Shown: positions 1,996-42,012 of the stretch, one piece after another
Layout: every line of letters begins with the position of its first letter
Numbering within the stretch: the first letter of the stretch is position 1
Assembly: GCA_030247885.1 (NCBI GenBank)
Contig: JAPDRO010000003.1
Span: 124,001-188,000, forward strand
Direction of reading: 5' to 3'
Origin: Taxawa tesnikishii (nom. ined.)
Lineage: Eukaryota; Ascomycota; Dothideomycetes; Dothideales
Length of the DNA: 64,000 bases
Position numbers and translations under genes: made by a program
The notes under the pieces: model-generated
What the model was told of the DNA's origin: nothing
The model's database searches: none
The model's input: the letters and a program-made list of their open reading frames with translations, nothing else

Positions 1996-4632
1996 ATGGC
2001 GTCTGCGAACACCATGCCGCGCAAGCTGTGGGAGCACCCGAATCCGGAGAAAACGGAGATGTACCGGTTCATGCGGAAGCTTAACGAGAGGAAGGGACTG
2101 AAGATGAAGGTGTGTGATTTCATCATCTGGTGTTCCTCGTATGCGGCAGAGACATTCCTTTCATGGAAGGGGCCAAAGAAAACACAAAGGTGTTGAAGTT
2201 GCAGCAATTCTATCCGAGGAGCAAAGCCAGAGCATCAAGAAGAAAACAATGTCGAAGATCGATGCTGCCATCTCTGTTTCTCAAACCCAAAGTAAAGCGA
2301 ATTTCGGGTCTGAAGCGCACAAACAGAATTGCCGAGAACGTATGCAGAGAGATATCACGAGTCTGACCATCACAGACCTTCCAGGACCTCTACGCTTATT
2401 CCATAACCCAGCGCCTCCCCTTCTGGTCCGATGTCTTCGACCTTCTGCCCCTGATCCACACTGGCAGCTACACGGAACCCGTTGATCCCAACGCACGCAT
2501 GGATTCCGTACCGCAATGGTTTGCTGGTGTCAAGCTCAACTTCGCCGAGAACATACTCTTCTCGCCGGACCCGAGCGACCCGTCCAAACTCGCCAAAACT
2601 GGCAAAGAGGACACGAAAATTGCATGCACAGAGGTGCGCGAGGGCTGCACCGAGATCCGGGATGTGAGCTGGGCGGAGCTGCGTCAGCGCGTCGGGCGGC
2701 TGGCGAATGCCATGCGAGCGCACGGTGTCGGAAAGGGTGATAGGGTGGCGGTCGTGGCGTCGAATTCGCTGGATACACTGACCGTTTTCTTCGCTATCAC
2801 TTCGCTGGGTGGACTGTTCAGCAGCTCGTCGACGGATATGGGATCAAAGGGAATCCTGGACAGGCTGACGCAGATCAAACCGAAGTACGTTTTTGTGGAC
2901 GATCGGGCGGTTTACAATGGAAAGACGATCGACTTGCGCCCCAAGATGGAGGAAGTCGTTACCGGCATGCGGGATGTGATCGAGTTTGAAAGGTTGGTCA
3001 GTCTGCCAAGGTTCCAGGACAAACCGGAAGATGTGAGCAGGGTACCAAAGACCATCACGTTAGCGGAGTACCTGAACAAGGGAAATGGGAATGCCGAGCT
3101 GGTATTTGAAAAGATTGAGTTTAAGGATCCGTTTTTGGTGGTGTATTCGAGCGGAACCACGGGCACGCCGAAGTGTATTGTGCACTCGGCCGGTGGTGTG
3201 CTGATTAACAGCGTCAAGGAGGGAAAGCTGCACAGAGACATTGGTCCGGAAACGGTTGCGTTACAGTATACCACGGTAAGCCTTCGTAGAGGTGGCCAAG
3301 TCCTGAGTCTAACGAGTGCGATCTGCAGACGGGCTGGATCATGTACCTCAGCTCGATCCTGGGACTGCATCATGGGGCTCGGGTGGTTCTGTATGACGGT
3401 TCGCCATTCCAGCCAGATCTGAAGACCTTTGTCCGGCTAGTTGGGGAGCAAAAGTAAGAGGCCCACGTTCTAACATTTTTCTCTTGCAATTGCTGACGTA
3501 CCTCTCACAGAGTTACTGACCTCGGAATCTCTCCCCGGTATCTCCAAACACTTGCATCTGCCTCCCCACCCGTCATACCAAAGCAGACGACCGACCTTAG
3601 CCATCTGCGCAGAGTATCTTCAACCGGCATGGTGCTCTCCGAAAACCTCTTCGAGTGGGTATACGACGAAGCGTTTCCACCGCATATTCAACTGGCAAAT
3701 ATCAGTGGCGGGACTGATCTGGCCGGTTGCTTCGGTCTTGAAAACCCACTGACCCCAGTGTATGTCGGTGGCACACAAGGTCCCAGCTTGGGGCTCAAAG
3801 TTGAGGTGTTCGATCAGACTGTTGAAGGTGGGAAAGGAGTCAAGGGAGAAGCATTACCGATCGGCGAAGCGGGCGAACTTGTCGCGTAAGTGCCATGGCT
3901 GCTTCGCTCGAAAAGAACGTTGGCTGATGAACGAGCTTTAGGACAGAAGCCTTTCCTAACATGCCAGTCATGTTTTGGGGTGATGAAACAGGCCAGAAGT
4001 ATTTTGATGCCTACTTTGGGCGCTTCGACGGTAGGATCATCCCTTCAATATCTGCAACCACATCGCAGCTGACAACTCAGATGTCTGGACGCATGGCGAT
4101 TTCATTCACATCCACCCTCAGACTGGCGGCATCTACTTCCTTGGGCGCGCAGATGGAGTCCTCAATCCGTCCGGCGTACGTTTCGGATCCGCAGAGATAT
4201 ATTCGGTCATCGAGACGTTCTTCGGCGATGAAATCCAAGACAGCATCTGCGTGGGTCAGAGGCGACCGACCGATCCCGACGAAAGCGTGATGATGTTCTT
4301 GCTGATGAAACCCGGGCAGAAGTTCAGTCAGGACCTGGTCAAGAGGGTCAAAGATAGGATAGCGAAGGAATGCTCGAGGAGGCATGTGCCCAAGTTCGTC
4401 TTCGAGACACCAGAGATACCGGTGAGTTTCGCTGCATATCTGATAGATCCGTGAGCAGAGCTGACAGAGACAGACGACTGTCAACCTGAAGAAGGTGGAG
4501 TTGCCGGTCAAGCAAATTGTCTCCGGAAAGGTTGTGAAGCCTTCGGGCACCCTGTTGAATCCGGAAAGCTTGAACTACTACTACCAATTCGCGAAGGTTG
4601 AGGATCTCCTGCCACCTAGGAGCAAGTTGTAG
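1996..4632 (+). CDS. Acetoacetyl-CoA synthetase
   Basis: ANL-superfamily (AMP-forming) ligase that activates acetoacetate to acetoacetyl-CoA in the cytosol, linking ketone bodies or leucine breakdown to sterol and fatty acid synthesis. Seven exons can be drawn with all phases matching: 1996-2109, 2376-3275, 3329-3453, 3511-3885, 3942-4030, 4081-4421, 4474-4632, giving 700 residues, normal for the family. The N-terminus (LWEHPNPEKTEMYRFMRKLN) and YSITQRLPFWSDVFDL are typical of AACS. The adenylation P-loop SSGTTGTPK lies near residue 297. Later motifs include ISGGTDLAGCFG, WTHGDFIHIHPQTGGIYFLG and the C-terminal lysine region VELPVKQIVSGK. Intron 1 (266 nt) is unusually long for this locus; the others are 50-57 nt. 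No frame disruption. Confidence 0.95.
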
Positions 4633-5800
4633 ATACTATAGACGGGGAACGGACAGCTTCGATTCGCGAGTTACGGTCCATGTCGGAGAAAGACCACTAG
4701 ACTGTTCTATCAATGACTGGAGGCGAACAGTCGAGCAAAGCTGAAGTGGCGCTGAACTGAATTGTAGGCATCTGCCTACTTGGGTCTGGTCTATGAACGA
4801 AAGGTGATAAGAATGTTTTAATGATGATCGCAAGTGAATAGTTGCCAGCAATAGACAAATCTACTTCACTTGGCTATTGAAGCCTCACATGAGCCTCGCT
4901 GAAGCTTGACCAACCGTCGTCTCAACATTGTTTTAACTTCGCTTGTCCGGGCTGTCGGGAGCGTCGTGTGGTTCGTTTGGTTCTGTTCGTACAAGATAAG
5001 GTTGTGATGTGCAATGCAATCTTTGCCCGTCTCCTCGGCCCTCCAACGGGCTGGACCGTCATGGTAGCGTTGTGGGCATGAACGTTACGAAGGTTCAGTT
5101 TCACGGTGTCACTTCCGCTTGTACATTTGTTCACAACCACAGCCCCACGATTAGTGCATGTGATGCCATCTTCAACTACGAAGTCCTTCCCCAAACAGTT
5201 ACCCGTCAGTAGCCGGGCACTGCTGCCGTTCCGGATCCCATCAGCTGAGGTGGGATGACTTGCGGAGCAAACGCGGCCCCACATCCCCCAGCCAACACCA
5301 CCTTTACCAAGCAATGACAGCCATTCTTCTCCAACCACTGCGAGAGTTATGACCCAGCTAAGTTGAGACATTGGGCGCGCGGGCAGCGGGTGCCGTTTCG
5401 GGAGATCTGGTGCGGAATGCTTGAGTTGTCGGTGTTACAATCGGCTTTGGGTTCTGCCTTGGTTGCTTGGGGCATATGGCGTGCTTTGGTGCTTTGCGAG
5501 ATTCATAATGGTGTGATGGCCCACCCTGATGCCTGATGACCAGCCTGCTTTGTGTTCAAGGAGAGTAGGTTCCTCTTTTTATCTGCTTCGTCTCTCTTCC
5601 TCCATGATACAGTCACAAACACGTCTCCATCGAACAAATCAAAGTCTATATAGGACATATCAGCTCTCCCTTCTACATTGCTGCTTCCGGTACCACTAGA
5701 GCGTCGATACGTGCAAGAAAGACCACCCCCACCTCTCTCCAAAGCCCCCAGTTACTTCCGGAGTGCGGCCACGAGCTCAGACTCGCCCACAACAATCACA
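4633..5800. other. Intergenic, no gene recognised
   Basis: About 1.2 kb between the synthetase stop and a small downstream gene. Open frames are at most 149 codons, lack motifs and overlap on both strands. It presumably holds the synthetase 3' UTR and the promoter of the next gene. Confidence 0.5.
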
Positions 5801-6131
5801 ATGACGCACCCGACTCCTTCGCTCCTCCTCCAAACCCTCCGTCACTACTCCTACTCCGCTCGCAGCGTGCAGACAACGAGCCGCGACAGACTCAAGACGA
5901 TTGCGGTTATGGGATACTGCCTGATCGCATTCAGCGCGCCGTTCGCGGGAGCGGCCGAGATGAGCAGACGAACGGCAAAGGATGGTACCTACGCTAAGCT
6001 GTAAGTGACGCTTCAAATGAGGAAGAAGGTGGGTGCTGATGATTTGTTTCAGGCGGCCACTGAGCTTCAGGGATTGCTTGCGGTGCTCACCTCTGGAGGA
6101 TTACGCTGGCGTCGGGGCTTTGAGGCGATGA
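5801..6131 (+). CDS. Small hypothetical membrane protein
   Basis: Predicted 92-residue protein from two exons, 5801-6000 and 6053-6131. The 52-nt intron has a good GTAAGT donor and a TTTCAG acceptor, and the joined frame stays open to TGA at 6129. The N-terminus is basic and Ser/Thr-rich (LRHYSYSARSVQTTSRDRLK), which would suit a mitochondrial presequence. One hydrophobic stretch follows (IAVMGYCLIAFSAPFAGAA) and then a short polar tail. I do not recognise the family. The intron and the context (AACAATCACA just before ATG) support a real gene, but the length keeps confidence low. Confidence 0.4.
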
Positions 6132-6546
6132 ACGAGAAGAGCGTTGCGCGTAGTTCAGATATGTGATTTGGCGTTTGGGAGGGCTCAGAGGCATCGAGCG
6201 GCGTTTTGGCAGCATATGGAGATTCCCTATGAGACGGATCGGAGTTTGGAGATGCTTTTCTTCCACTATTTCGGTCGTATTTCGGGGTTTCATTTTCCAG
6301 CATCCAGTGCTATCCCGATAGTAAGAGATATTTTACAAATCGTACAAATCCCCTTGAGATTCTTCAGATGTCTCTCGTTGCAGCAGAACAACAGACAGCC
6401 AGAGACCTGATTCCGTGCAAACAACGCAGACAGCAAGCACGCTTCCAGTTTTGATCAGCGCACTGAAAGTCATCTCCCACGGTCCCTCTGGCAGACGGTG
6501 TCACCAAGAGCCAGATGCTGCCCTCCATCCGTCCCGCCCCACCAAC

Positions 6547-7036
6547 CTAGCTGAACCGATCGCCCTTTTTACTCCTGAACGGCTCACTGCTCTCGTACTT
6601 GGGCTGTCCGTGACTACTCCTCGTAACCAAGCTCCCTCCCTCATCACCTCCTTCGCTCCTGCCAGCATGGCCCTCAGCCGGACTGACCGGGTCCGACGCC
6701 GCCTCTTTGCTCGGATTCGGGTGTGCGTCGGCCTTTCTCGGCGGTGGTGGTTGTGTGTATTGGGACGATTGGATACGGTGCATGGCTTGTCGTCGTCGCT
6801 CTTCAGTTGCTGCGCGCTCGGCGCGGTCAGCGTTGATTTCCCGCTTCGCAAAGTAGTAGGCGCCGCCGCCGGCGACTATCAGGACGCCCCAGCCGTAGCT
6901 GTGGAGGTGGGGTTAGTGACTGGAGGACAAGGCATTGCGACGAAGGTAGTGGGAGACGTGCCCGACTGATCTGATCTGAAGAGAGGTCAGTTGAATGAAG
7001 GTTAGGTGAAGAAGCGGCTGCTCGTACTGTGTTCAT
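6547..7036 (-). CDS. DUF4748-type fungal protein, single membrane segment
   Basis: Conserved small fungal protein of unknown function. The exon at about 6905-6547 encodes a short N-terminal membrane segment followed by basic residues (YGWGVLIVAGGGAYYFAK, then REINADRAERAATEERRRQA). A disordered middle follows, ending in the family's characteristic tail (PKYESSEPFRSKKGDRFS). The TCCACAG acceptor preceding the domain is clear at about 6906. The first coding exon is not resolved: an ATG at 7036 with a GTACGA donor immediately after is the best candidate, but its phase does not match the downstream frame, so either another start is used or a base is missing. The gene is divergent from XPB. Assignment rests on the membrane motif plus the C-terminal motif recalled from DUF4748 members. 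Confidence 0.6.
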
Positions 7037-21022: not shown

Positions 21023-23795
21023 TCAATACCGGAGCAGAAACCCGTGGATCGTAGGGGTTGTGCCCCCAGTCACCTTGTGACGAAACTTCTGATCTGAATA
21101 AGCGGTTCTGTAACTGATGCGCTCACATATGGCCGGTAGGGGACCTAGTCTCGGGTCTTCGTAAGTGAGCGAGCCTGTGGATATATCTTGGAATGCCTCG
21201 AAAGGCTCGCCGTCTTCGTTCACTGGTCGAACTACTTTGTGTGTAACTGGCATTGGGCCGAGAAAAGCTTCTCCGTTCATGAAGCCATGGAAGTAGCAGG
21301 GGCCTGCGACCTCATAACCACTGACGCCAGCCTTTCGCAAGATCATGGGCACCGAACAACCCACGATCATACAGACAAAATCCCCTGGATGAAGTGAGTT
21401 CACGGACCTCGAACACTCGGACAAACCAGTGATCTCAACGATCAGATTGTGTGAACAGCTGGCTGCTATTGCAAAGCGACGAACAAATCAACATAGCTAC
21501 GTAGCTATGCAAGGCATTGCAGTAGCAGTCAGTCAGTCCCAACGTCTGGCCATAAAGAGCATGGATCAGATAGTGGCCTACCTTCTTGAATGGCGGGTGG
21601 GCCCAAGCCGATACCTCCTCCGTGTGTCTTGAAGAATGAGCGACCTGAACAAGCCTGTCGTACGCGTCCCATGAAATTATCCGCCTCAAAGTCCACTTCT
21701 GTCTCAATGTCGCCAGAGCGAACATTTCGAAGGTACGAGTCCTTGCACTGGCGAAGTGACGGGATGTCGAGATCCGGTCGATGCTCTTTCGTACGGTTCA
21801 AGCAAAGGACAGTTATGTATGCCTCCAGTAGTGACTCTCCTGTAAAATACAAGGCAGTGTCGAGGTTCTGCGGTTCCCATTGTCGAAAGATAGCTCTCGC
21901 TTCTCGAGATGATGAGACCAGATCCGTGGGTAAAGCCTCGTGTGCCACCGTCAGAGTTGCGAAATGCACCGCTTCCACACGTAGAATATTGGGCTCGACG
22001 AAGTGGTCTTCCACTTCCACAGTGGCTTCAACAGTAACGGTAGGATAGATCATCAGGGCTCCGTGCCTCAATCCAACCGGTTCCGCAGACCAATCCGGTA
22101 CCCATGTTGGGGCGTTAACTCTGCGCCTGCTTAGATTGCAGTGTGTGAGAAGTATTAGGGAGCCAGTACAGTCGACGTATTCGAAGAAGAACTTCTGATA
22201 AGCTTGACCGTCTGACAATGAGTAATCCGCGTGTATGCCGTCCGTAAACCATTTTTGTGCGAAGCCTAGGAGGCCATATATTCTGTCTTTAGGTTCGGAG
22301 CATAGACAGTATCTCGTTATATCCAGCAAATGGATGAACGGCCGCAGTTGTTGGTCCTTACAGAGTGGACCGAGCGATATCAGTGAGTCTCGAGTCTCGG
22401 AGCTCGGCAAACTCTCCAAATCGAGGAGCATCAGGATTGTTCGTCGAAAGATAGACCAAAGCATGTAGTCGTTGCCACACTGCACCACTGTGCGAGAATT
22501 CGCAAGTTGTATCTCCTGCCAAATCCACACTCTTTGAAACCAAGACCGGCTCGTGAGGTTCATGATCGCATGCCACGTCTCTTCATTCATTGTTTGCAGT
22601 TTCACGTCAGTGACTTCAGGCGACCTAAACCCTTTCCCGTTCCGGGCAAATTCGATTTGAGAACCGAAGCGCTCCAGCATATCCAGCGCAAGTCCGCTAT
22701 CAGAGGTAGCTGGACCCAGCCACACAACAACCCGGTATGCTTGCCTGTAGATTATATCCATGCGGACCACCTGCTTGCTACGTTCGACGCGATCTTCTTG
22801 ATTGATGCCTAGTAGGTATTAGCGCAATTTGAGAAGCTCTCGCTTAGCTCACGAACTGAGGATGTGTTACTGCTCAGCTGGCCGACGCATGTTCCGAATA
22901 CCCTTCTGGTGGCCACCGCATCTAGAGAGATGCAGCATCGGGCAAGTGTCGGCTACATGCCCAAGACGCTACTACAACGAAATATCGCAGCAAGCGGTCG
23001 GGATTCAACCGATAGTCTTTTAAGGCTCGTTCATCATATTGAAAAATACTTACAGAGAGCATCAATCCACAACGTGCGGGGTCGATTCACGTGTCTCAAA
23101 TGGCGAAGGGCCGCTAACAGGTTCCCTTGTGCTTGAAGTATGGTTGTTCCAGATTCAGTCAGTACATGGACTACTCCAGGAGGTTCAGCGGATGCCCACG
23201 TGTACGACAATGCTTCATACACTGGGTCATAATCGGGAATCAGGTTCCACGACGTGAGTGCGTAGCGGGCCGGATCGAAGCCTGGAACCGGGTGCGTCCA
23301 TGTCGACACCTGAGATATCGTTAGCATTCTTGACATCGCTCACAGATTCAGCACGCCGGAACGCTCGATACAGCCATTCACTCAATCACGGTGTCTTGAG
23401 AGAGCGGTCTCTATGATACTGGTCCGTCGAGCATACGTTGACTACATGCTCAGGAGACCTATCGAAAGGAGGCCTTCTGGCAAGCAGTCGATCTTGTAGG
23501 AACGGCTTGTCAAATCAATATGACTATTAGCCTATCGGTCAACACGTACCATCGCATCTCTGTTGATGAAAGCAAAGCGTCCGTCGATAGTTTCGTATAC
23601 TTCCCAACCACGAGGCAGGGTCTTCTGCAGCTCTTGTACGGTGACTTTCGGTAGCTGCTCAGAATTCGCAGGTTCACGCAAAGGAGCATGGAACATTTCG
23701 CAACGGATGTCATCATCGAACGTGCCAGGAAGCAGCTTGAGAAGGCGGATCTCCTGTAACTCAACGTCGAGCGGGCAGTACTTGTAGGCTGTCAT
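21023..23795 (-). CDS. Heterokaryon incompatibility (HET) domain protein with WW-like insert
   Basis: HET proteins trigger or modulate regulated cell death after non-self recognition in filamentous fungi. Four exons with matching phases: 23795-23550, 23309-23054, 22808-21582, 21384-21023 (introns of 240, 245 and 197 nt), 696 residues. Exon 1 holds the entry motif (YKYCPLDVELQEIRLLKLLP) and half of a WW-like module (LPRGWEVYETIDGRFAFIN). Exon 2 completes it (STWTHPVPG) and continues with HET blocks YEALSYTWAS and RPRTLWIDALC. Exon 3 begins INQEDRVERSKQV, then the IYRQAYRVVVWLGPA, SRSWFQRVWIWQEIQLA and PKDRIYGLLGFA blocks. Exon 4 gives DFVCMIVGCSVPMILRK and CYFHGFMNGEAF. The start (ATG ACA GCC TAC) is the first Met before the conserved motif. 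Partner or allele specificity cannot be inferred. Confidence 0.88.
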
Positions 23796-25281: not shown

Positions 25282-26358
25282 ATGCCGCGTCAAGCGACTT
25301 CTGGGCATCAGGTGAGGGTTTGGTCATGCGTTCAAGCGGGCGTTTATGGATGAATAGCACGGAGGGCCGTAAACGGCAATGCAGCTATTGCCATCACGTG
25401 CAAGGAACGGGGCGGGCAGACCGGGACGGTTATCGCAATGCATAGGTGGAAAATCTATCAGATGTATATCACCTACAACAGTCGGCAGTTCGCCACTCAT
25501 GTGAGCACTCCTACTGGGGGCAGCAAGAAGTCTCTGCGAGCTTCATGGTGTAGAGCCGTGTCACACGTGTGCTACCTATCATCAAAACCTTACAATCTAT
25601 ACGGTTTCGACCTAGCAACTCGACGCGATATACCATGCATTTGTACAGTTCCCGTCCGGCATTACTGAACCCACTTTGTCTGTGACCATGACCTGGGAGC
25701 AATTCTATCTAGTTCCGGGAATTGCAAGACTTGAGTTGTTCTCGTGTGAGTCTAGAAGGGTTAGGAGTGTGGAGGATGTACGTGAACGCAATCTCGCTTC
25801 TCCGCAAAAAGGCTTCCCGTCGATCAAACTTGAGTGACACTCGTCAGTTTCAGGCTATCTATTCACAGCCGAGCTACACAACCCGCTGTAAGCTGTACAA
25901 GCTCTTTCTGGCACACCTGCGTGCTTGAACGATAGGAACAAGAAGAAGATTGTCGCAGAGCAAGAAGCTTGACGGGACGTTACACAACGAGCCCTGTGCG
26001 GAGCCTCAGATTCCGCTTCCGAAAAAGGAAATGTATGATGATTCTCTAGGTTTACCCCTCAGAGAAATGCACGTTGTACGTGGGTGGAACACAAATTTCT
26101 CCGTGTCAAATCGTGTCCGTCCATCGAATCCTATGCCTGCGTTTCACCACTTCGCGACGATATTGCGCCGACCCCTTGCCCTAGACGACATGTCTTGGCG
26201 GCGATCTGCTAGCCGACTATGAATGGTGGTGGTACCTCTACAGATGCTGTTTTCCTTCCTTCAGTATTTCCCTTTTCATTGTATCCTATTTGTACCCTCC
26301 CGGCCGTCGTCTGTCGTTTTCGCTTTCCGCATTCATTTCTTTCGAGGTTACCTTCAAC
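25282..26358. other. Intergenic, no gene recognised
   Basis: 1.1 kb between CFIm25 and the rhamnogalacturonan hydrolase. No supported gene. It contains the hydrolase promoter; the last 120 bases are T/C-rich. Confidence 0.5.
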
Positions 26359-27805
26359 ATGCGCTTCCTTTCTTCCGTCCTGGCTCTCGCGGCCGTTGTC
26401 CCTACGCTGGTCGTAGGTCAGCTCTCTGGTTCTGTCGGCCCTCTTACTACACACGCCACAAAGGCCGCCAAGAAGACTTGCAACGTCCTCGACTACGGTG
26501 CCAAGGCAGATGGCAAGACTGACATCGGTCCCGCCATAACCAGCGCCTTCTCCGCCTGCAAGACTGGCGGCGTCGTCATCATTCCCTCCGGTAACTATGC
26601 CATGGCTACCTGGGTCACCCTCAGCGGCGGAAGCGCTTGGGCCATCCAGCTCGACGGTATCCTCTCGCGTACTGGTACCGCTGGCGGCAATATGTTCATG
26701 ATCGAGCACAGCACCGACTTCGAGCTGTTCTCCAGCACCTCCAAGGGTGCCATCCAGGGCAACGGCTACGTCTTCCACGCTCAGGGCAGCATCTCCGGTC
26801 CTCGTATCCTGCGTCTGTACGAGGTCACCAGCTTCTCCGTTCATGACGTCGCGCTTGTTGACTCCCCGGCCTTCCACTTCACCATGGACACCTGCACCAA
26901 CGGTGAGGTTTACAACATGGCTATCCGCGGTGGTAACGAGGGTGGTCTTGATGGTGCTGACATCTGGAGCACCAACATCTGGGTTCACGATGTCATGGTA
27001 ACCAACAAGGACGAGTGTGTTACTGTCAAGGTATGGGGTGTTCTGGTGCACGAATCATGTACTCGATCTGACCGGATGCAGTCTCCCGCCAAGAACATCC
27101 TAATCGAGAACATCTACTGCAATTGGAGCGGAGGTACATCTCTTCTCTCGTCTCTCCCAACTCCATCATTGCTAACACTCCCCGTCCAGGTTGCGCACTC
27201 GGCTCCCTCGGCGCCGGCACCTCCATCTCCAACGTCGTGTACAAGAACGTCTACACCTGGTCCTCGAACCAAATGATGATGATCAAGTCCAACGGGGTTC
27301 TGGTACCGTCTCCGACGTCACCTTTGAGAACTTCATCGGCCACGGCAACGCCTACTCCCTCGATATCGACCAATACTGGTCCTCCATGTCCGCCGTCTCT
27401 GGCTCCGGTGTCCAGCTCACCAACATCAACTTCAGCAACTGGACCGGCACCGAGGCCAATGGCGCCCAGCGCGGTCCAATCAAGGTCGTTTGCGCAGACG
27501 GTGCGCCATGCCACGGCATCACCATCGAGGACTTCAGCATGTGGACCGAGACCGGAAGCAGCCAGTGGTACTCGTGCCGCAGCGCTTACGGTAGCGGCTT
27601 CTGCCTCAAGTCTGGTTCGAGCTACAGTAGCTACGCCGCCACTACCACCACTGTTAAGACTGCGCCAACGGGCTATACTGCCCCAACCATGGCGGCCGAC
27701 CTGAAGAGCGCTTTCGGTACCACCGCCAGTATCCCCATTCCGGCCATCCCGACTTCTTTCTTCCCAGGTGCTAAGCCCTACACCAAGTTGGCCGGAAGCA
27801 GCTAG
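26359..27805 (+). CDS. rhgA: Rhamnogalacturonan hydrolase, GH28, one frame break
   Basis: Secreted endo-enzyme that cuts the galacturonic acid-rhamnose backbone of pectin rhamnogalacturonan I. Signal peptide [20 protein letters not shown], then [20 protein letters not shown] as in Aspergillus RhgA. Exons 26359-27030, 27082-27133 and 27190-27805. The right-handed beta-helix motifs are clear: [44 protein letters not shown] (catalytic Asp pair region), [49 protein letters not shown]. As written the frame is lost at the GGGG run 27294-27297 ([12 protein letters not shown]). One extra G would restore the family sequence through to TAG at 27803. The Ser/Thr-rich end ([17 protein letters not shown]) is also as in RhgA. 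Confidence 0.95.
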
Positions 27806-36044: not shown

Positions 36045-37546
36045 TCACCTTGTTGCAGCAGCGAGATGTTCCAACTCCAGCACGGCATGTCGAATCGGAG
36101 ATCCAAGTGAGATATGCGAGCTAGAGGTGCTGTCCAGAACGCGCAGACACTGAAGCGTCACGTCCACATAACGCTGGCCCAGGGTAATTGCAAGCGAGTC
36201 TGCCAAACTCTCAAGATTTGTTTTCCGTTTCGCAGCCTGGACGTTCTTAAACATCGTATCATATGAAGTCACAGGCTTCCAGCGGCCCAACTCTACCAGA
36301 ACCACTCCCAGGCTGTAGATGTCGTACTCAGCTCGGTACGGCGCGGCGGTACAGTCGCTCGCCTCTGCTTCTGATGCGCGTTCTGGATGTTGATATATCG
36401 TCCTCCGCCAGCTTTCACCGGTTTCGTCACCTGTAGACGTGGCTTGACCGCGTCGCGAGTAGTCAAGACCAGCAAGGAACGCCGTGCCCAGACACTGTGG
36501 AAAGCATCTACCGGAGGAATCCTTTTGAGCGAGCCATATATTGGACGATCGGATACCTTTATGGAACCAGCCGACCGAATGAATGAACAGTACAGCAGTC
36601 GATATTTGCCTGGCAAGTTCGAAGCGTTCGTTGAGAGGATGCTTCACCTTTGTTCCGTCTACCATCTCCCACAACTGCGTCAGCTGTTTTGGTTTGCAGT
36701 AGCCCTTAGGCAAATCGTAAGCGATGCCAAAAGGAACCGCTGGGATGGGTTCTTGAGTTCTCGGATCGCAAGACTCGACATAACATGCGGCTCGAAGCAG
36801 GAACATCTCATCCGGTACTACAGATCCGAGTACGGTGGCAAGTTTCATGGCCTCTTCTTCGGTCTCCTCCTGAAAGTCGACGTTGCTAGCCATACTTGCA
36901 GGAATCCGTCGGAGTTCGACTAAGCGCATGCGATGATCCACTTCCGTTATATGCGGCGTTCGAGACACATCGATTTTTCTGGCCTTCACCAAAGGGAGCT
37001 TAAGTGTAGTGTTCCATGTGCTCATTTGGCGCGCACCAAGCTCCCGAAAAAGCGGATCTTGTCTTCCATCTGTTGTTGGGCTGTCACTGCTCTCATGGCT
37101 CCGATCGAAGGATCGACCGCAGAAACCAACTGCCTCCTCGTTTGATGCGGGAACCATACGAAGCATGTCTGCAGTCTCTGGATCCACTGGAAGATCTTCT
37201 CTTCGGAAGACTTCAGGTCCTTGCCCAATACAGCCCATTGCACTTCGTTCCAGACAGTTACTCTCTGATATTTGAGCGCTCGCACATAGGCATCTTGCGC
37301 GATCAGTGACAAGTACGAAAAGACTCTTGTCAAATGCTCAACGTTGTCTTGGTCCAAGACTCGAAGCTTTTCTTCGGTGAAGAATCCGTGAAGACTAGAG
37401 AGAAGATTGAAATCGTTCTCGAAGCGAAGCAAGATTTCTGGAATGTTTGTTTTGGCATCATGGATGTCTTTCAGGAAAGCAGCAAGGTCCTTTAGAAATC
37501 CCCAAGAAGCAGATATGGCACCGAGCACGGCAAATCCGGAAGGCAT
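36045..37546 (-). CDS. HeLo-like N-terminus plus degenerate protein-kinase-like domain
   Basis: Probable cell-death or incompatibility-related protein, about 500 residues. The N-terminal ~130 residues look like the HeLo/prion-inhibition-propagation class (MPSGFAVLGAISASWGFLKD, VSYLSLIAQDAYVRALKYQR-like helices, VWNEVQWAVLGKDLKSSEEK). The C-terminal part is a kinase fold lacking catalytic residues: the HRD-loop position reads FHKGIRSSNIWLA instead of HRDLKxxN, the DFG position reads AGLDYSR, and YDIYSLGVVLVELG keeps the structural Asp-Gly block. It is therefore likely a pseudokinase. The N-terminal frame stops at 37022 right after IRFFGSLVRAK, and the downstream frame continues from MSTWNTTLKLP; one A added to the AAA run there (about 37027-37030) would join them. 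It lies head to head with the kinase-ankyrin gene. Confidence 0.72.
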
Positions 37547-37739
37547 TTTTTCTTATCTGAAACGCGCCCAAGCAGGAGCAGAAGTTGCTTTGCAGTTTAC
37601 GGAGCCATGTAGAGCAATTTCTCAGCCTCGTGCGGGGCTTGTGTGACCACTGCATGGTATGCTAATAATAGACATGAACAGGGTGCTACATTTCAGTCTA
37701 CTGCTGATTCTGTACGCATCAACAAACAGCAAAGACAAC
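37547..37739. promoter_or_regulatory. Short bidirectional promoter of the HeLo/kinase-ANK pair
   Basis: Only 193 bases separate the divergent start codons (127 if the kinase gene uses the upstream ATG at 37674). Such spacing implies shared control; no specific site is recognised. Confidence 0.5.
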
Positions 37740-40700
37740 ATGTTTTCGAAATCTGATCAAGCCGGTGATAGTGATGCAAGCAAAGTACCACAAAGCAATA
37801 ATGACATCTCTTCTCTATGGCCTTCGTCTGTTGCCCATGATTTACTCTCACAGTCTAACAAAGCCATAGCCTCATTCACACGTTCACTCCGAGAAACGCA
37901 GATCGCACTCAACCCTGTTGGATTCACGCGTTCCATAGCGGATACTCCTGTGCCGCTCGTCCCCATCGATGAGATCACTGTAGGAAGATGGCTTGGAAGC
38001 GGATGGACAATGAGCGTCTTCGAAGGCGAGTGGAGAAGGCCAACAGCATCACGCGCGATCGCAGTGAAGTAAGATCACACTACTTCTGAATCGTAGCGCT
38101 GTCATACTCACGAAGAAGGACAATAAATCTGGATATTGCCCTTGGTCTCACTTCGGAGGAAGAACATAGTAAAGACTTCCGGTTGAAGATGGCTTCTGTG
38201 CTCCTCGGTATTTGTCAACACACTATTTACCAACTGTGCTTGAACTGACTGTTTGTGCCTTTTATAGAGATACGGCTGATGTCTCACGAGCTTCTTCGAA
38301 ACCACCGAAACATCGTAAGTTTACTGGGGATCACCTGGACGGATCAACAACGTGTCCTGGACAGAAGGCCGACTCCTACCCCGACGCTGCTAGTGGAGCG
38401 CGCCGCTATCATGCATGGGCGACCTCTGACCCTTCAGTATTGGGTTGAAGGTACTCTTCCAGCCGACAAGGAGGTAAGAACCAAAACCAAGCTTCTTACT
38501 GATGTAGCTTCAGGCCTAGCAGCCCTGCATGCTCTTGGCGTGGTGCATGGTGATATCAAGCCAGAGAACATCCTTCTATTCTGTGATGATACCAACCTTG
38601 TTGCTAAAATCTCCGATTTTGGCTTCTGCCTTCCTGGGGATGACGAACTCCAGGCAGCGAAAGGAGGGACGCCCTTGTGGAACGCACCAGAGTGTATGGA
38701 AGATGCGGAAGAAGACTTACTGGAGCACAAATCGGACAGAGGTCGAGATATCTACTCTTATGGCCTTCTTATCTGGTTAGTTCAAAGCCCGTTATCTAGA
38801 GTTACGTCTCCGTTGCCGATGCTGATGGCCGTCTCAAGGTATGTACTATTCGAAGAGCTGCCATTCGAAGCAAGCGTATCAGTGGCGAAAGCATCCAAAC
38901 GTCTAGAGTCAATGAAGGACAAGATTGATGTCGCGTTCGCGCAACTTTACCGACCGAGTTTGAAGGCGAACCAAGGAAGCCAGGAACAATTTGATGTACG
39001 GTCACGATCGTGGATTGTGTGTGAGGAGAGCCATCAGCACATTTTACGATTCCTCATGCAGTGGATTCTCGTCCGTGATCCCGCCTTGAGAAGACTGACT
39101 CTCGATATCTATCGAGGAATCTTCGATGATAGCACCTGCCATGAGCGGGCAAAACTGAGCTTCATCACTCCAGGACGTTGGGATTACGAATGGAACGCAT
39201 TTGGACATCCAGCTGTACGAAGAGGCCGGCTTGATCTTGGTGGACTTCAAAGGTAGGTCGACATCATGCAATGCTACCCATGTGCTCACGAATCTGGTAG
39301 GGAGTGGGAGAACTCGCTTTACTGTATTCGCCCACGCACATATCCTGAGGATTGGGGCAAGTTACACGATTTTGAGCCTAGCTCGAAAGCCCGAAAGGTT
39401 GATGCTCTTTCTGACAGATATGGAGCCGGATGCTGATCTGTCATAGGTATACGAGTTAAAGGACCGATATATTCCCTTCGAACTGCAGCAGGCAATGTTT
39501 GAAGAAGCATTGGAAGCCACCCATTACGGCCACCCCGGAAAACGCAATACACACGAAAGATTTGTCGCAGACTGCTTTGCTCTAGGATTCGGGGTCCCTG
39601 TAGACATGGGGAAAGCTATTGACTGGTACGAGAAAGCTGCGAATGATGGAGATGACGAAGCAGTGGAGAATTTCCTACTTACGACAGGGTTACACTCCGC
39701 TCTTGCACGCCTCGGTGAGGAAAAATACTGCCACTATCTCTGCCGAGTTTTGCTTCTGGCCTTTAGAGGTACATCTCAATTCTCACCAGAGGACGGTTAT
39801 GGACCTCAACTGAGCAGACTGGAACATCTACTGTGTCACGACACGAGATTGGCCCGCAAACCGCTCGAGTATGTTTTCGAGCGCCATGTCACAAGTGTGG
39901 CCCGGCAGTCGCAAAACAGCCCGGACTACCTGGAAAGTGGCCGTTCAATACCCGCCTGGACAGACGCTGTCACCGCAATCATATTCGATGACCTCGAAAC
40001 TTTGCGGGAGATTCTCAAGAGTAACCCGCATTTGACAAGCCATGATGGGGACCCTCCGAGCTTAGTATATATTGCTGCTCAAGAGAATCGCGCTGGTATC
40101 CTGCGTGTTCTCTTGAAAGAGTTTGGCATGAATCCAAAAGGACGCAATAGCGAAGGCACCAACGCTCTTTCGCGGGCCGTACAACTGGGCCACACGGCGG
40201 CAGCGCGAGTATTGACGTTCTCGGATCGAGGATCTTCTATCGAGAAACTGACTATAATGGAGAATGCTTCTGCGGGTAGAAGTGGTGGGCTATGTTGTTG
40301 ATTCTGTAGGTTTTCATTACTGACAACATCTAGACTTCACCAAGTTCATATACGAGAGGTTCCTTGGTGCCAGGCGAGATGAAACAAGCGAGAACCGTGA
40401 CGATACAGCTGTTCACCAGCTTCGCCGCATTTCGATGACCTCTCTTGGGACTGCCATTCTCAATGACAATTGGAGTGTGTTTGCAGCTCTTCTTGCCATG
40501 GGTGTTGACGCGAGTATGATACCGCTTCCCAGCGACCTTGGCCCTGACAAGCTTGACTTGCCAGATACCTGGTTCGCAGCTCCCCTGCTGGCAGCAACCA
40601 TGTACAATGCGCCAATACTTGCCGCTACTCTTGCATTCGGTGCTTCCACAGGCATGCGCACTCCATCGCCAGATGGACGCACCTCCTTACACTTGGCCGC

Positions 40701-42012
40701 TGGACGATACGGAAGTCCAGCTTCAAGCTTCGAAGACTCACCCTTACCGGATTATGCCAAAGATTGGCCTCTTGATCGTGCAGTTCTGCCAAAGGAGACG
40801 TTGCACGAATTCCAGCATTTGTGTATCTCAATCCTGGTAGCCGCAGGAGCAGACGTTGACGTGCGTGACTACCGCGGAGATACGCCTCTGATGTACGCGC
40901 TCGAGAATGAGTTGGACATGATTACCGCAGATTTGTTGCTCAACATGTCACCCACACCAGCCAACATCGATGCTCAGGAATTCACCGGAAACACTTCGTT
41001 GCACAAAGCCGTGGGAGACGGGCACCACGAGCGCTTGAAATTCTGTCTCTCCAGGGGTGCACGGACTGAAATACGGAATCTCACCGGATTGACTCCTCTT
41101 GGTCTTGCTGTCAAGGAAGGTAACCTTCGCGCATGCGAAGAGCTCCTAAGACATGGCGCGCATATTGATGCTCAAGACGCAAATGGGCAGAACAGCATTG
41201 GTCTAGCAGTCCAGTGGGCACAACTCGAGATATTGCACTTCTTGACCGCCAGTCTTTCGGAAGATATACTTCGGCGTCTGGTGCTTACGCCGGATTGTCG
41301 CGGATGGAATGCGTTGCGTCTCTGCATAGCCACAAGCGCGACGAACGAAGCATTCACGAATGTCTTTCGACAATGGATCGAGGACTTGCCTGATCTTGAC
41401 TTGGACCAAAGAGATCTTTGTGGACTGACACTCCTGCACATGGCTGTTATCTGCAACCCGGTCTGTTTGGAGATCCTGCTGAAGAACGGAGCCTCGGTAG
41501 ACATCAAAGACAGCATTTGCGGCTGGACACCGCTTCACCATGCCTGCAATCAGGCCCACTCTGAAGTGCTCAACTACTTGCTTGCGTTTGGCGCCGACTT
41601 TTACATGAAAGACGACCTGATGGGCTGGACGCCATGGACGATGCTCGAGCAATCCACAGATAAATACAGAACAGACAAGGGCGAGATGGATTCCGAAAGG
41701 CGAAAGCGCAAGCGACAAGCACGGAGGCGGATAAAGCTTTGGGAACGGACAGGGCGATTCTTTGCCGAGGAGTCCGCGAGACGGCTGACGGTGGTCGTCA
41801 ACCAGAAGCAGATAGACAGGGAAACCGAGAACGCTCGTGCAAAGGTGTTCCCAGAGTGTCGGCCTGCAGAAGAACGATCTCCAGAAACTGGGGAGCCACT
41901 GCGCATATGGAATTGTAGGAACTTAAGGAGATGTTTCATGATGAACGCGGATGGGCAAAGTGCGGCACAGTTTTGGATTGATCCTAGTGGGGGTCGGATT
42001 CCCTGTGAGTGA
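37740..42012 (+). CDS. Protein kinase - Sel1-like - ankyrin repeat protein
   Basis: Seven exons with matching phases: 37740-38068, 38119-38207, 38268-38775, 38839-39252, 39301-39397, 39447-40275, 40334-42012; 1,314 residues (22 more if the ATG at 37674 is used). The kinase domain has a Gly-rich loop GRWLGSGWTMSVFEGEW (about 82-98), the Lys in AIAVK near 110, VVHGDIKPENILL near 231 (catalytic Asp present), KISDFGFCLPG near 254, and GGTPLWNAPECMED for APE. All catalytic residues are present, so it should be active. A Sel1-like repeat follows (FVADCFALGFGVPVDMGKAI, near 515). About eight ankyrin repeats span 710-1200 (GNTSLHKAVGDGHHERLK, GLTPLGLAVKEGNLRACEEL, GWTPLHHACNQAHSEVLNYL). The exon 5 donor (GTTGAT) is weak. 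It resembles fungal ankyrin receptors with an effector domain; function inferred. Confidence 0.85.

What the first reader, a model, noticed from the sequence alone, without database searches (positions are those of the whole stretch)
36045..42012. Head-to-head HeLo-like/pseudokinase gene and active kinase-Sel1-ankyrin gene
Two multi-domain genes share a promoter of under 200 bases. One has a HeLo-like N-terminus plus a kinase fold without catalytic residues (HKGIRSSN, GLDYSR). The other has an intact kinase (HGDIKPEN, SDFGF) followed by a Sel1-like repeat and about eight ankyrin repeats. Established systems such as HET-S/NWD2 place a HeLo cell-death effector next to its repeat-bearing receptor. 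This pair may be an analogous receptor-effector module in which a kinase replaces the nucleotide-binding switch. It is the best candidate here for an undescribed system.
Basis: partly seen in the sequence, partly recalled or inferred. Interest (0 to 1): 0.7.

Follow-up and report, generated by a model that had tools for sequence, protein, structure and literature searches.

The report
Fungal kinase beside MLKL-like pseudokinase gene
Two back-to-back fungal genes encode an active-looking protein kinase with ankyrin repeats and an MLKL-shaped dead-kinase protein, a possible fungal counterpart of the mammalian necroptosis kinase-executioner pair, but the link is unproven and the second gene appears frame-broken in this assembly.

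Summary
K (37740-42012, 7 exons, 1315 aa) is an intact-looking Ser/Thr kinase + one weak Sel1 repeat + ankyrin repeats. H (minus strand, ATG 37546) is a helical N-terminus followed by a kinase fold lacking catalytic residues. The 'HeLo' label is unproven: no Pfam hit, no PDB sequence hit beyond chance, no match to a profile of seven genomic HeLo-like proteins, and low-confidence models show only a generic four-helix layout. It stays plausible because one of the pseudokinase's two relatives in this genome appears to continue from a frame with a Pfam HeLo domain. HELL-pseudokinase proteins are already mentioned in a 2025 review. A HET-S/NWD2-type pair in the same genome (head-to-head, 241 bp) shares an amyloid-type motif; K and H share none. 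Coupling, if any, would be kinase to pseudokinase (RIPK3-MLKL-like). Conserved synteny could not be tested. Each gene is a known kind; the pairing is an attractive, thinly supported hypothesis.

The parts
37025..37546 (-). gene H, frame A: helical N-terminus, 174 codons from ATG 37546; in-frame stop at the third codon upstream of the ATG
   Evidence: predicted helices 4-29, 35-55, 66-93, short 101-105, 111-129 at low confidence
36048..37337 (-). gene H, frame B: open frame holding the pseudokinase; this frame has the better codon bias from about 37.07 kb on
   Evidence: Pkinase 6.7e-6; codon bias
37022..37130 (-). stretch in which gene H most likely changes from frame A to frame B, with no plausible intron
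36540..36563 (-). HKGIRSSN, degenerate catalytic loop (no catalytic Asp)
36381..36473 (-). AGLDYSR in place of DFG, then a loop to QHPE; GLDYSR-to-QHPE has 9 S/T/Y in 30 residues; equivalent in place to the MLKL loop that RIPK3 phosphorylates
   Evidence: functional parallel is inference
37547..37739 (.). 193-bp region between the two start codons
37740..42012 (+). gene K: exons 37740-38068, 38116-38207, 38268-38775, 38839-39252, 39301-39397, 39447-40275, 40334-42012; 1315 aa
37977..39091 (+). K Ser/Thr kinase domain (residues about 80-394, introns included); HGDIKPEN at 38546-38569 (non-RD type)
39564..39653 (+). K Sel1-like repeat (residues 520-549)
   Evidence: 27.0 bits, below curated cut-off 30.7
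40155..41625 (+). K ankyrin-repeat region, approximate (cores at residues 717, 870, 938, 975, 1008, 1120, 1153)
   Evidence: own-genome Ank hits at C23:165086-165178, 165422-165511, 165518-165613

Best explanation
H belongs to a fungal family of MLKL-shaped proteins (N-terminal helical bundle, C-terminal pseudokinase) and K is an active non-RD Ser/Thr kinase whose Sel1/ankyrin part senses or scaffolds something. Most likely mechanism if the two work together: a cue bound by K's repeats brings K molecules together or frees its kinase; K phosphorylates the loop after H's degenerate DFG; the pseudokinase stops restraining the helical bundle; the bundle inserts in the plasma membrane and kills or arrests the hyphal cell. 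Shown: adjacency, domain content of K, loss of catalytic motifs in H, no shared terminal motif. Inferred: HeLo nature of the bundle, kinase activity of K, phosphorylation of H by K, membrane activity, cell death. In this assembly H is frame-broken, so here the module may be inactive, or the break is an assembly error.
For: K kinase motifs and Pfam scores. H pseudokinase. H's pseudokinase has relatives in the same genome: H2 on C6, E 9.5e-11, reciprocal 1.3e-10, and a C-lobe frame on C33 (H3), E 2.0e-5 from H and 2.7e-5 from H2. The frame just upstream of that C-lobe frame carries Pfam HeLo PF14479, 28.9 bits against a cut-off of 23.2, and ends in a kinase-like HGN stretch; that the two frames are one gene is inference. 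K and H are head-to-head at 193 bp, like the HeLo/NACHT-type pair at 241 bp. No terminal motif is shared by K and H, while the control pair scores 76 against a shuffle mean of 22.9 (0 of 1000), so a non-amyloid route is what remains. PMC12881547 (passages, and sections 18 and 20 read; [quoted passage not shown]
Against: H N-terminus unrecognised by Pfam, PDB sequence search and the genomic HeLo-like profile; no relative of it found in the genome; structure models inconclusive. H frame-broken as assembled. H2's frame has no HeLo hit, and H3's HeLo-bearing frame alone finds nothing but itself. Neither H2 nor H3 has a kinase-ankyrin neighbour among the ORFs inspected. One genome only.
Confidence: 0.34

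Rival explanations
1. Coincidental neighbours: K is a stand-alone kinase-ankyrin signalling protein and H an unrelated pseudokinase family member; the short gap only reflects a compact fungal genome.
For: H2 and H3 are not next to kinase-ankyrin genes among the ORFs inspected; no shared motif; a further HeLo gene (L060) shows no NACHT or kinase by eye among its largest neighbouring ORFs, one of which was scanned (AMP-binding), so adjacency is not a rule.
Against: One other HeLo gene of the genome sits head-to-head with a NACHT-type gene, and a broken one faces what looks by eye like a NACHT remnant, so adjacency carries some weight for this class.
Confidence: 0.38
2. H is a decaying pseudogene; K is the only working gene and may have lost its partner or act on another target.
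For: Frame change without a usable intron; another HeLo gene in the genome carries six stops within the match, so decay of this class happens here.
Against: Outside the frame change both parts stay open over 174 and over 330 codons and keep mostly positive, in frame B weak, codon bias, which fits a recent event or an assembly error.
Confidence: 0.2
3. A HET-S/NWD2-type amyloid-signalling pair in which K's N-terminus templates H.
For: Head-to-head layout and a large repeat-bearing neighbour.
Against: No NACHT/NB-ARC hit in K; no shared terminal motif and no match to three RHIM/HRAM-like patterns in K or H, with a working positive control for the alignment test.
Confidence: 0.03

Closest known systems
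RIPK3-MLKL necroptosis module (animals) and plant MLKLs
   Same: helical N-terminus plus pseudokinase in H; a separate kinase with intact motifs in K
   Different: no RHIM-like pattern in K or H; ankyrin/Sel1 on the kinase; H bundle not shown to be a 4HB; phosphorylation untested; genes adjacent and divergent
Fungal HELL-kinase/pseudokinase proteins (mentioned in PMC12881547, figure 6 legend)
   Same: architecture proposed for H; a related pseudokinase in this genome appears joined to a Pfam HeLo frame (H3)
   Different: H's N-terminus is not recognised as HeLo; frame-broken
[quoted passage not shown]
   Same: head-to-head effector-like gene and repeat-bearing partner
   Different: no NLR, no shared motif; an example lies elsewhere in this genome (L059)
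Gasdermin-protease two-gene clusters of fungi (PMC12881547, PMC10197012)
   Same: an enzyme fused to ANK/TPR/WD repeats encoded beside a putative membrane executioner
   Different: kinase instead of protease; putative helical bundle instead of gasdermin
RIPK4/ANKK1 (kinase plus ankyrin; architecture recalled; only a listing seen)
   Same: kinase followed by ankyrin repeats
   Different: K has a Sel1 repeat and a long linker; relatedness beyond the kinase fold not shown

Membership tests
HeLo/HELL-pseudokinase (MLKL-architecture) proteins | C-terminal kinase fold without catalytic residues | tested here: met
   Pkinase 6.7e-6 (below curated cut-off); HKGIRSSN and AGLDYSR; relatives H2 (reciprocal) and H3 C-lobe frame
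HeLo/HELL-pseudokinase (MLKL-architecture) proteins | N-terminal HeLo/4HB bundle | tested here: inconclusive
   no Pfam hit; seven-sequence HeLo-like profile gives H E 4.2, 14th behind 13 decoys, while left-out members score 2e-6 to 5e-15; with two of seven leave-one-out profiles H came 3rd or 4th at E 0.04-0.08; low-confidence four-helix models
HeLo/HELL-pseudokinase (MLKL-architecture) proteins | both domains in one protein | tested here: inconclusive
   domains in different frames, no plausible intron
HET-S/NWD2 amyloid pair | partner is an NLR (NACHT or NB-ARC) | tested here: not met
   K: kinase, Sel1 and ankyrin hits, no NACHT/NB-ARC hit at E<=1
HET-S/NWD2 amyloid pair | amyloid motif shared by receptor N-terminus and effector C-terminus | tested here: not met
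   K 1-55 against H C-terminus: 633 of 1000 shuffles score as high; control pair 0 of 1000
HET-S/NWD2 amyloid pair | adjacent effector and receptor genes | tested here: met
   193 bp apart, divergent
active protein kinase (K) | G-loop, VAIK Lys, HxD Asp, DFG, APE | tested here: met
   activity itself not testable
RIPK3-MLKL-like module | kinase phosphorylates the pseudokinase and triggers membrane rupture | not testable with these tools
   needs biochemistry
conserved two-gene module | conserved synteny across species | not testable with these tools
   no relatives of this genome held; single copy in own genome. H frame B in viral contigs and K 1-639 in prokaryote contigs gave no relatives; the other combinations were not run

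The most novel reading that the evidence does not exclude
A fungal necroptosis-like module with a dedicated activating kinase: an ankyrin/Sel1 sensor kinase (K) directly switches an MLKL-shaped executioner (H) encoded head-to-head with it, so that kinase-to-pseudokinase signalling, and not only amyloid templating, drives regulated cell death in fungi.
Probability: 0.2. Interest if true: 0.82.

Novelty: new variant of a known kind. Interest (0 to 1): 0.44.

Why it matters
[quoted passage not shown] the passages and sections I saw describe amyloid-templated activation and name no kinase acting on fungal HELL-pseudokinases. A divergently transcribed kinase with intact motifs beside such a gene is a concrete candidate for that upstream kinase and makes the question testable.

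Full report
Setting. The window is positions 124001-188000 of contig C23 of an unnamed 29.4-Mb genome of 34 contigs, for which the tool holds no relatives. Short GT-AG introns, a HET-domain gene (window 21532-22818, PF06985 E 1.2e-15) and HeLo genes point to a filamentous ascomycete; that is inference. Comparative tests were limited to this genome.

Gene K. From ATG 37740, seven exons joined by six GT-AG introns of 47-63 bp, chosen by eye, give 1315 residues. Pfam finds Pkinase (9.9e-22), one weak Sel1 repeat (27.0 bits, cut-off 30.7) and ankyrin repeats (Ank_2 4.9e-40). The catalytic set is complete: GSGWTMSV, IAVK, Glu in LLEIR, HGDIKPEN, SDFGF, WNAPE. The Arg of HRD is Gly, i.e. a non-RD kinase. 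Best PDB matches are phosphorylase kinase, IRE1, B-Raf and other kinases at 4e-11 and weaker. In its own genome K residues 1-639 have kinase-domain matches only; residues 372-639 match nothing but K at E<=1e-3 (39 candidates scored, counts are lower bounds).

Gene H. From ATG 37546, with an in-frame stop at the third codon upstream, frame A runs 174 codons. The pseudokinase lies in another frame (B, 36048-37337). Pfam gives Pkinase at 26.1 bits, under the cut-off, for B and nothing for A at E<=1. HKGIRSSN and AGLDYSR replace HRD and DFG. The two frames overlap at 37337-37022. Of 134 possible joining introns the best scores 13.1 with an unrealistic branch site, below every K intron; 60% of 300 coding stretches of the window do as well. 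Codon bias, trained on 4618 codons of eleven window ORFs, is better in frame A than in frame B in each 60-base window down to the one starting at 37096 except that at 37186 (2.3 against 3.9); from 37066 to 36826 frame B is the better, with mostly weak scores, and further down a few windows favour other frames. So the assembled gene is frame-broken around 37.1-37.0 kb. Because both sides stay open, a recent loss and an assembly error are both possible.

Is the N-terminus HeLo-like? Against: no Pfam hit, no PDB sequence hit beyond chance, no relative found in the genome, and a profile from seven HeLo-like/PigL_N-type proteins of this genome gives it E 4.2, behind 13 decoys, while each left-out member is found at 2e-6 to 5e-15. 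With two of the seven leave-one-out profiles H came third or fourth at E 0.04-0.08, a hint at most. For: two single-sequence AlphaFold2 runs (best models pLDDT 50.8 and 58.6, pTM 0.47 and 0.48, the other models 38-47) show helices 4-29, 35-55, 66-93/96, a short helix 101-105/106 and 111-127/129; PMC9815663 (passages) describes a short helix between the third and fourth helices as common to MLKLs and HeLo-likes. At this confidence, and with fold searches that return generic bundles, this is only suggestive. Indirect support: the H pseudokinase has two relatives in the genome, H2 (C6:21712-22074, E 9.5e-11, reciprocal 1.3e-10) and H3 (C33:983826-984113, E 2.0e-5). The H3 match lies in a 251-aa frame; the 449-aa frame just upstream carries HeLo PF14479 above the cut-off (28.9 bits) and ends in a kinase-like stretch. 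That both frames are one gene is inference, and the 449-aa frame alone matched only itself. H2's frame has no HeLo hit. An alignment keeps D-[IV]-YSLG and an HK/HG loop in H, H2 and H3.

Does the pairing mean anything? A positive control was found in the same genome: on C33 (L059) a HeLo gene (PF14479 1.9e-22) is head-to-head, 241 bp between presumed ATGs, with a NACHT-type gene (NPHP3_N 1.7e-8; P-loop seen by eye), and the N-terminus of the latter and the C-terminus of the HeLo protein share a motif (local score 76, shuffle mean 22.9, 0 of 1000). I did not model the exons of this pair; its pieces are parted by stops or frame changes that may be introns. The layout is that of HET-S/NWD2. A second HeLo copy, with six stops in the match, faces a frame that I read by eye as a NACHT-end remnant, although Pfam finds nothing in it. 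A third HeLo gene (L060) shows neither by eye among its largest neighbouring ORFs; one was scanned. K and H copy the layout (193 bp) but share no motif: 633 of 1000 shuffles match K 1-55 against H's C-terminus, and the best of five comparisons is reached by 64 of 1000. H2 and H3 have no kinase-ankyrin gene among the ORFs inspected in their 10-kb stretches (Pfam was run on 1 neighbour ORF of H2 and 3 of H3, the others were read by eye). So a kinase-ankyrin neighbour is not a rule for this pseudokinase family here.

Reading. What H works like: MLKL (bundle plus pseudokinase). What K works like: an upstream kinase with a repeat sensor. If coupled, phosphorylation of H's loop after AGLDYSR (9 of 30 residues are S/T/Y) is the simplest switch. 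Every functional step is inference. About equal weight goes to plain neighbourhood by chance, and a fair share to H being a pseudogene.

Literature. PMC12881547 (passages; sections 18 and 20 read in full) already notes HELL domains that are part of kinase/pseudokinase proteins and the two- or three-gene clustering of fungal death pathways. PMC10197012 (passages) describes two-gene clusters and MLKL/RIPK3. PMC12258605 (passages) finds PKinase in 12 Sordariales NLRs and calls it rare; PMC4986451 (one passage) lists it as an NLR domain; PMC5485727 (passages) names kinases only for RIP1/RIP3 and MLKL. The rows seen show no kinase-ankyrin gene paired with a HeLo-pseudokinase gene; lists were capped and most subscription papers are not held.

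Verdict. Real genes of known kinds, an unproven pairing, one damaged member. Interesting mainly as a sharp hypothesis for a fungal RIPK-MLKL-like axis.

Noticed in passing
L059 (G000:C33:1067001-1077000), 4336-6813: A HET-S/NWD2-type pair: HeLo gene head-to-head (241 bp between presumed ATGs) with a NACHT-type gene; N-terminus of the latter and C-terminus of the HeLo protein share an amyloid-type motif. Exons not modelled.
   Followed up: partly
L061 (G000:C23:236001-246000), about 3372-4990: A HeLo gene with six stops in the match lies head-to-head with a frame resembling the end of a NACHT module by eye (Pfam: no hit); looks like a decayed pair.
   Followed up: partly
L035 (G000:C33:979001-989000), 2105-3600 against 4400-6464: H3 (HeLo frame plus pseudokinase frame) is followed on the same strand by frames, one with a GDSG motif of serine-protease type (2105-2485, read by eye, not scanned); Pfam found nothing in the frames 2446-2841 and 2845-3600.
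   Followed up: partly
window 21532-22818 (-): HET-domain gene (PF06985 E 1.2e-15) about 13 kb from the pair.
   Followed up: no
window 26185-27276 (+): Glycoside hydrolase 28/pectinase-type frame.
   Followed up: no
G000:C15:80251: A kinase-like frame with HGDLKPEN and DFDGS in place of DFG.
   Followed up: no
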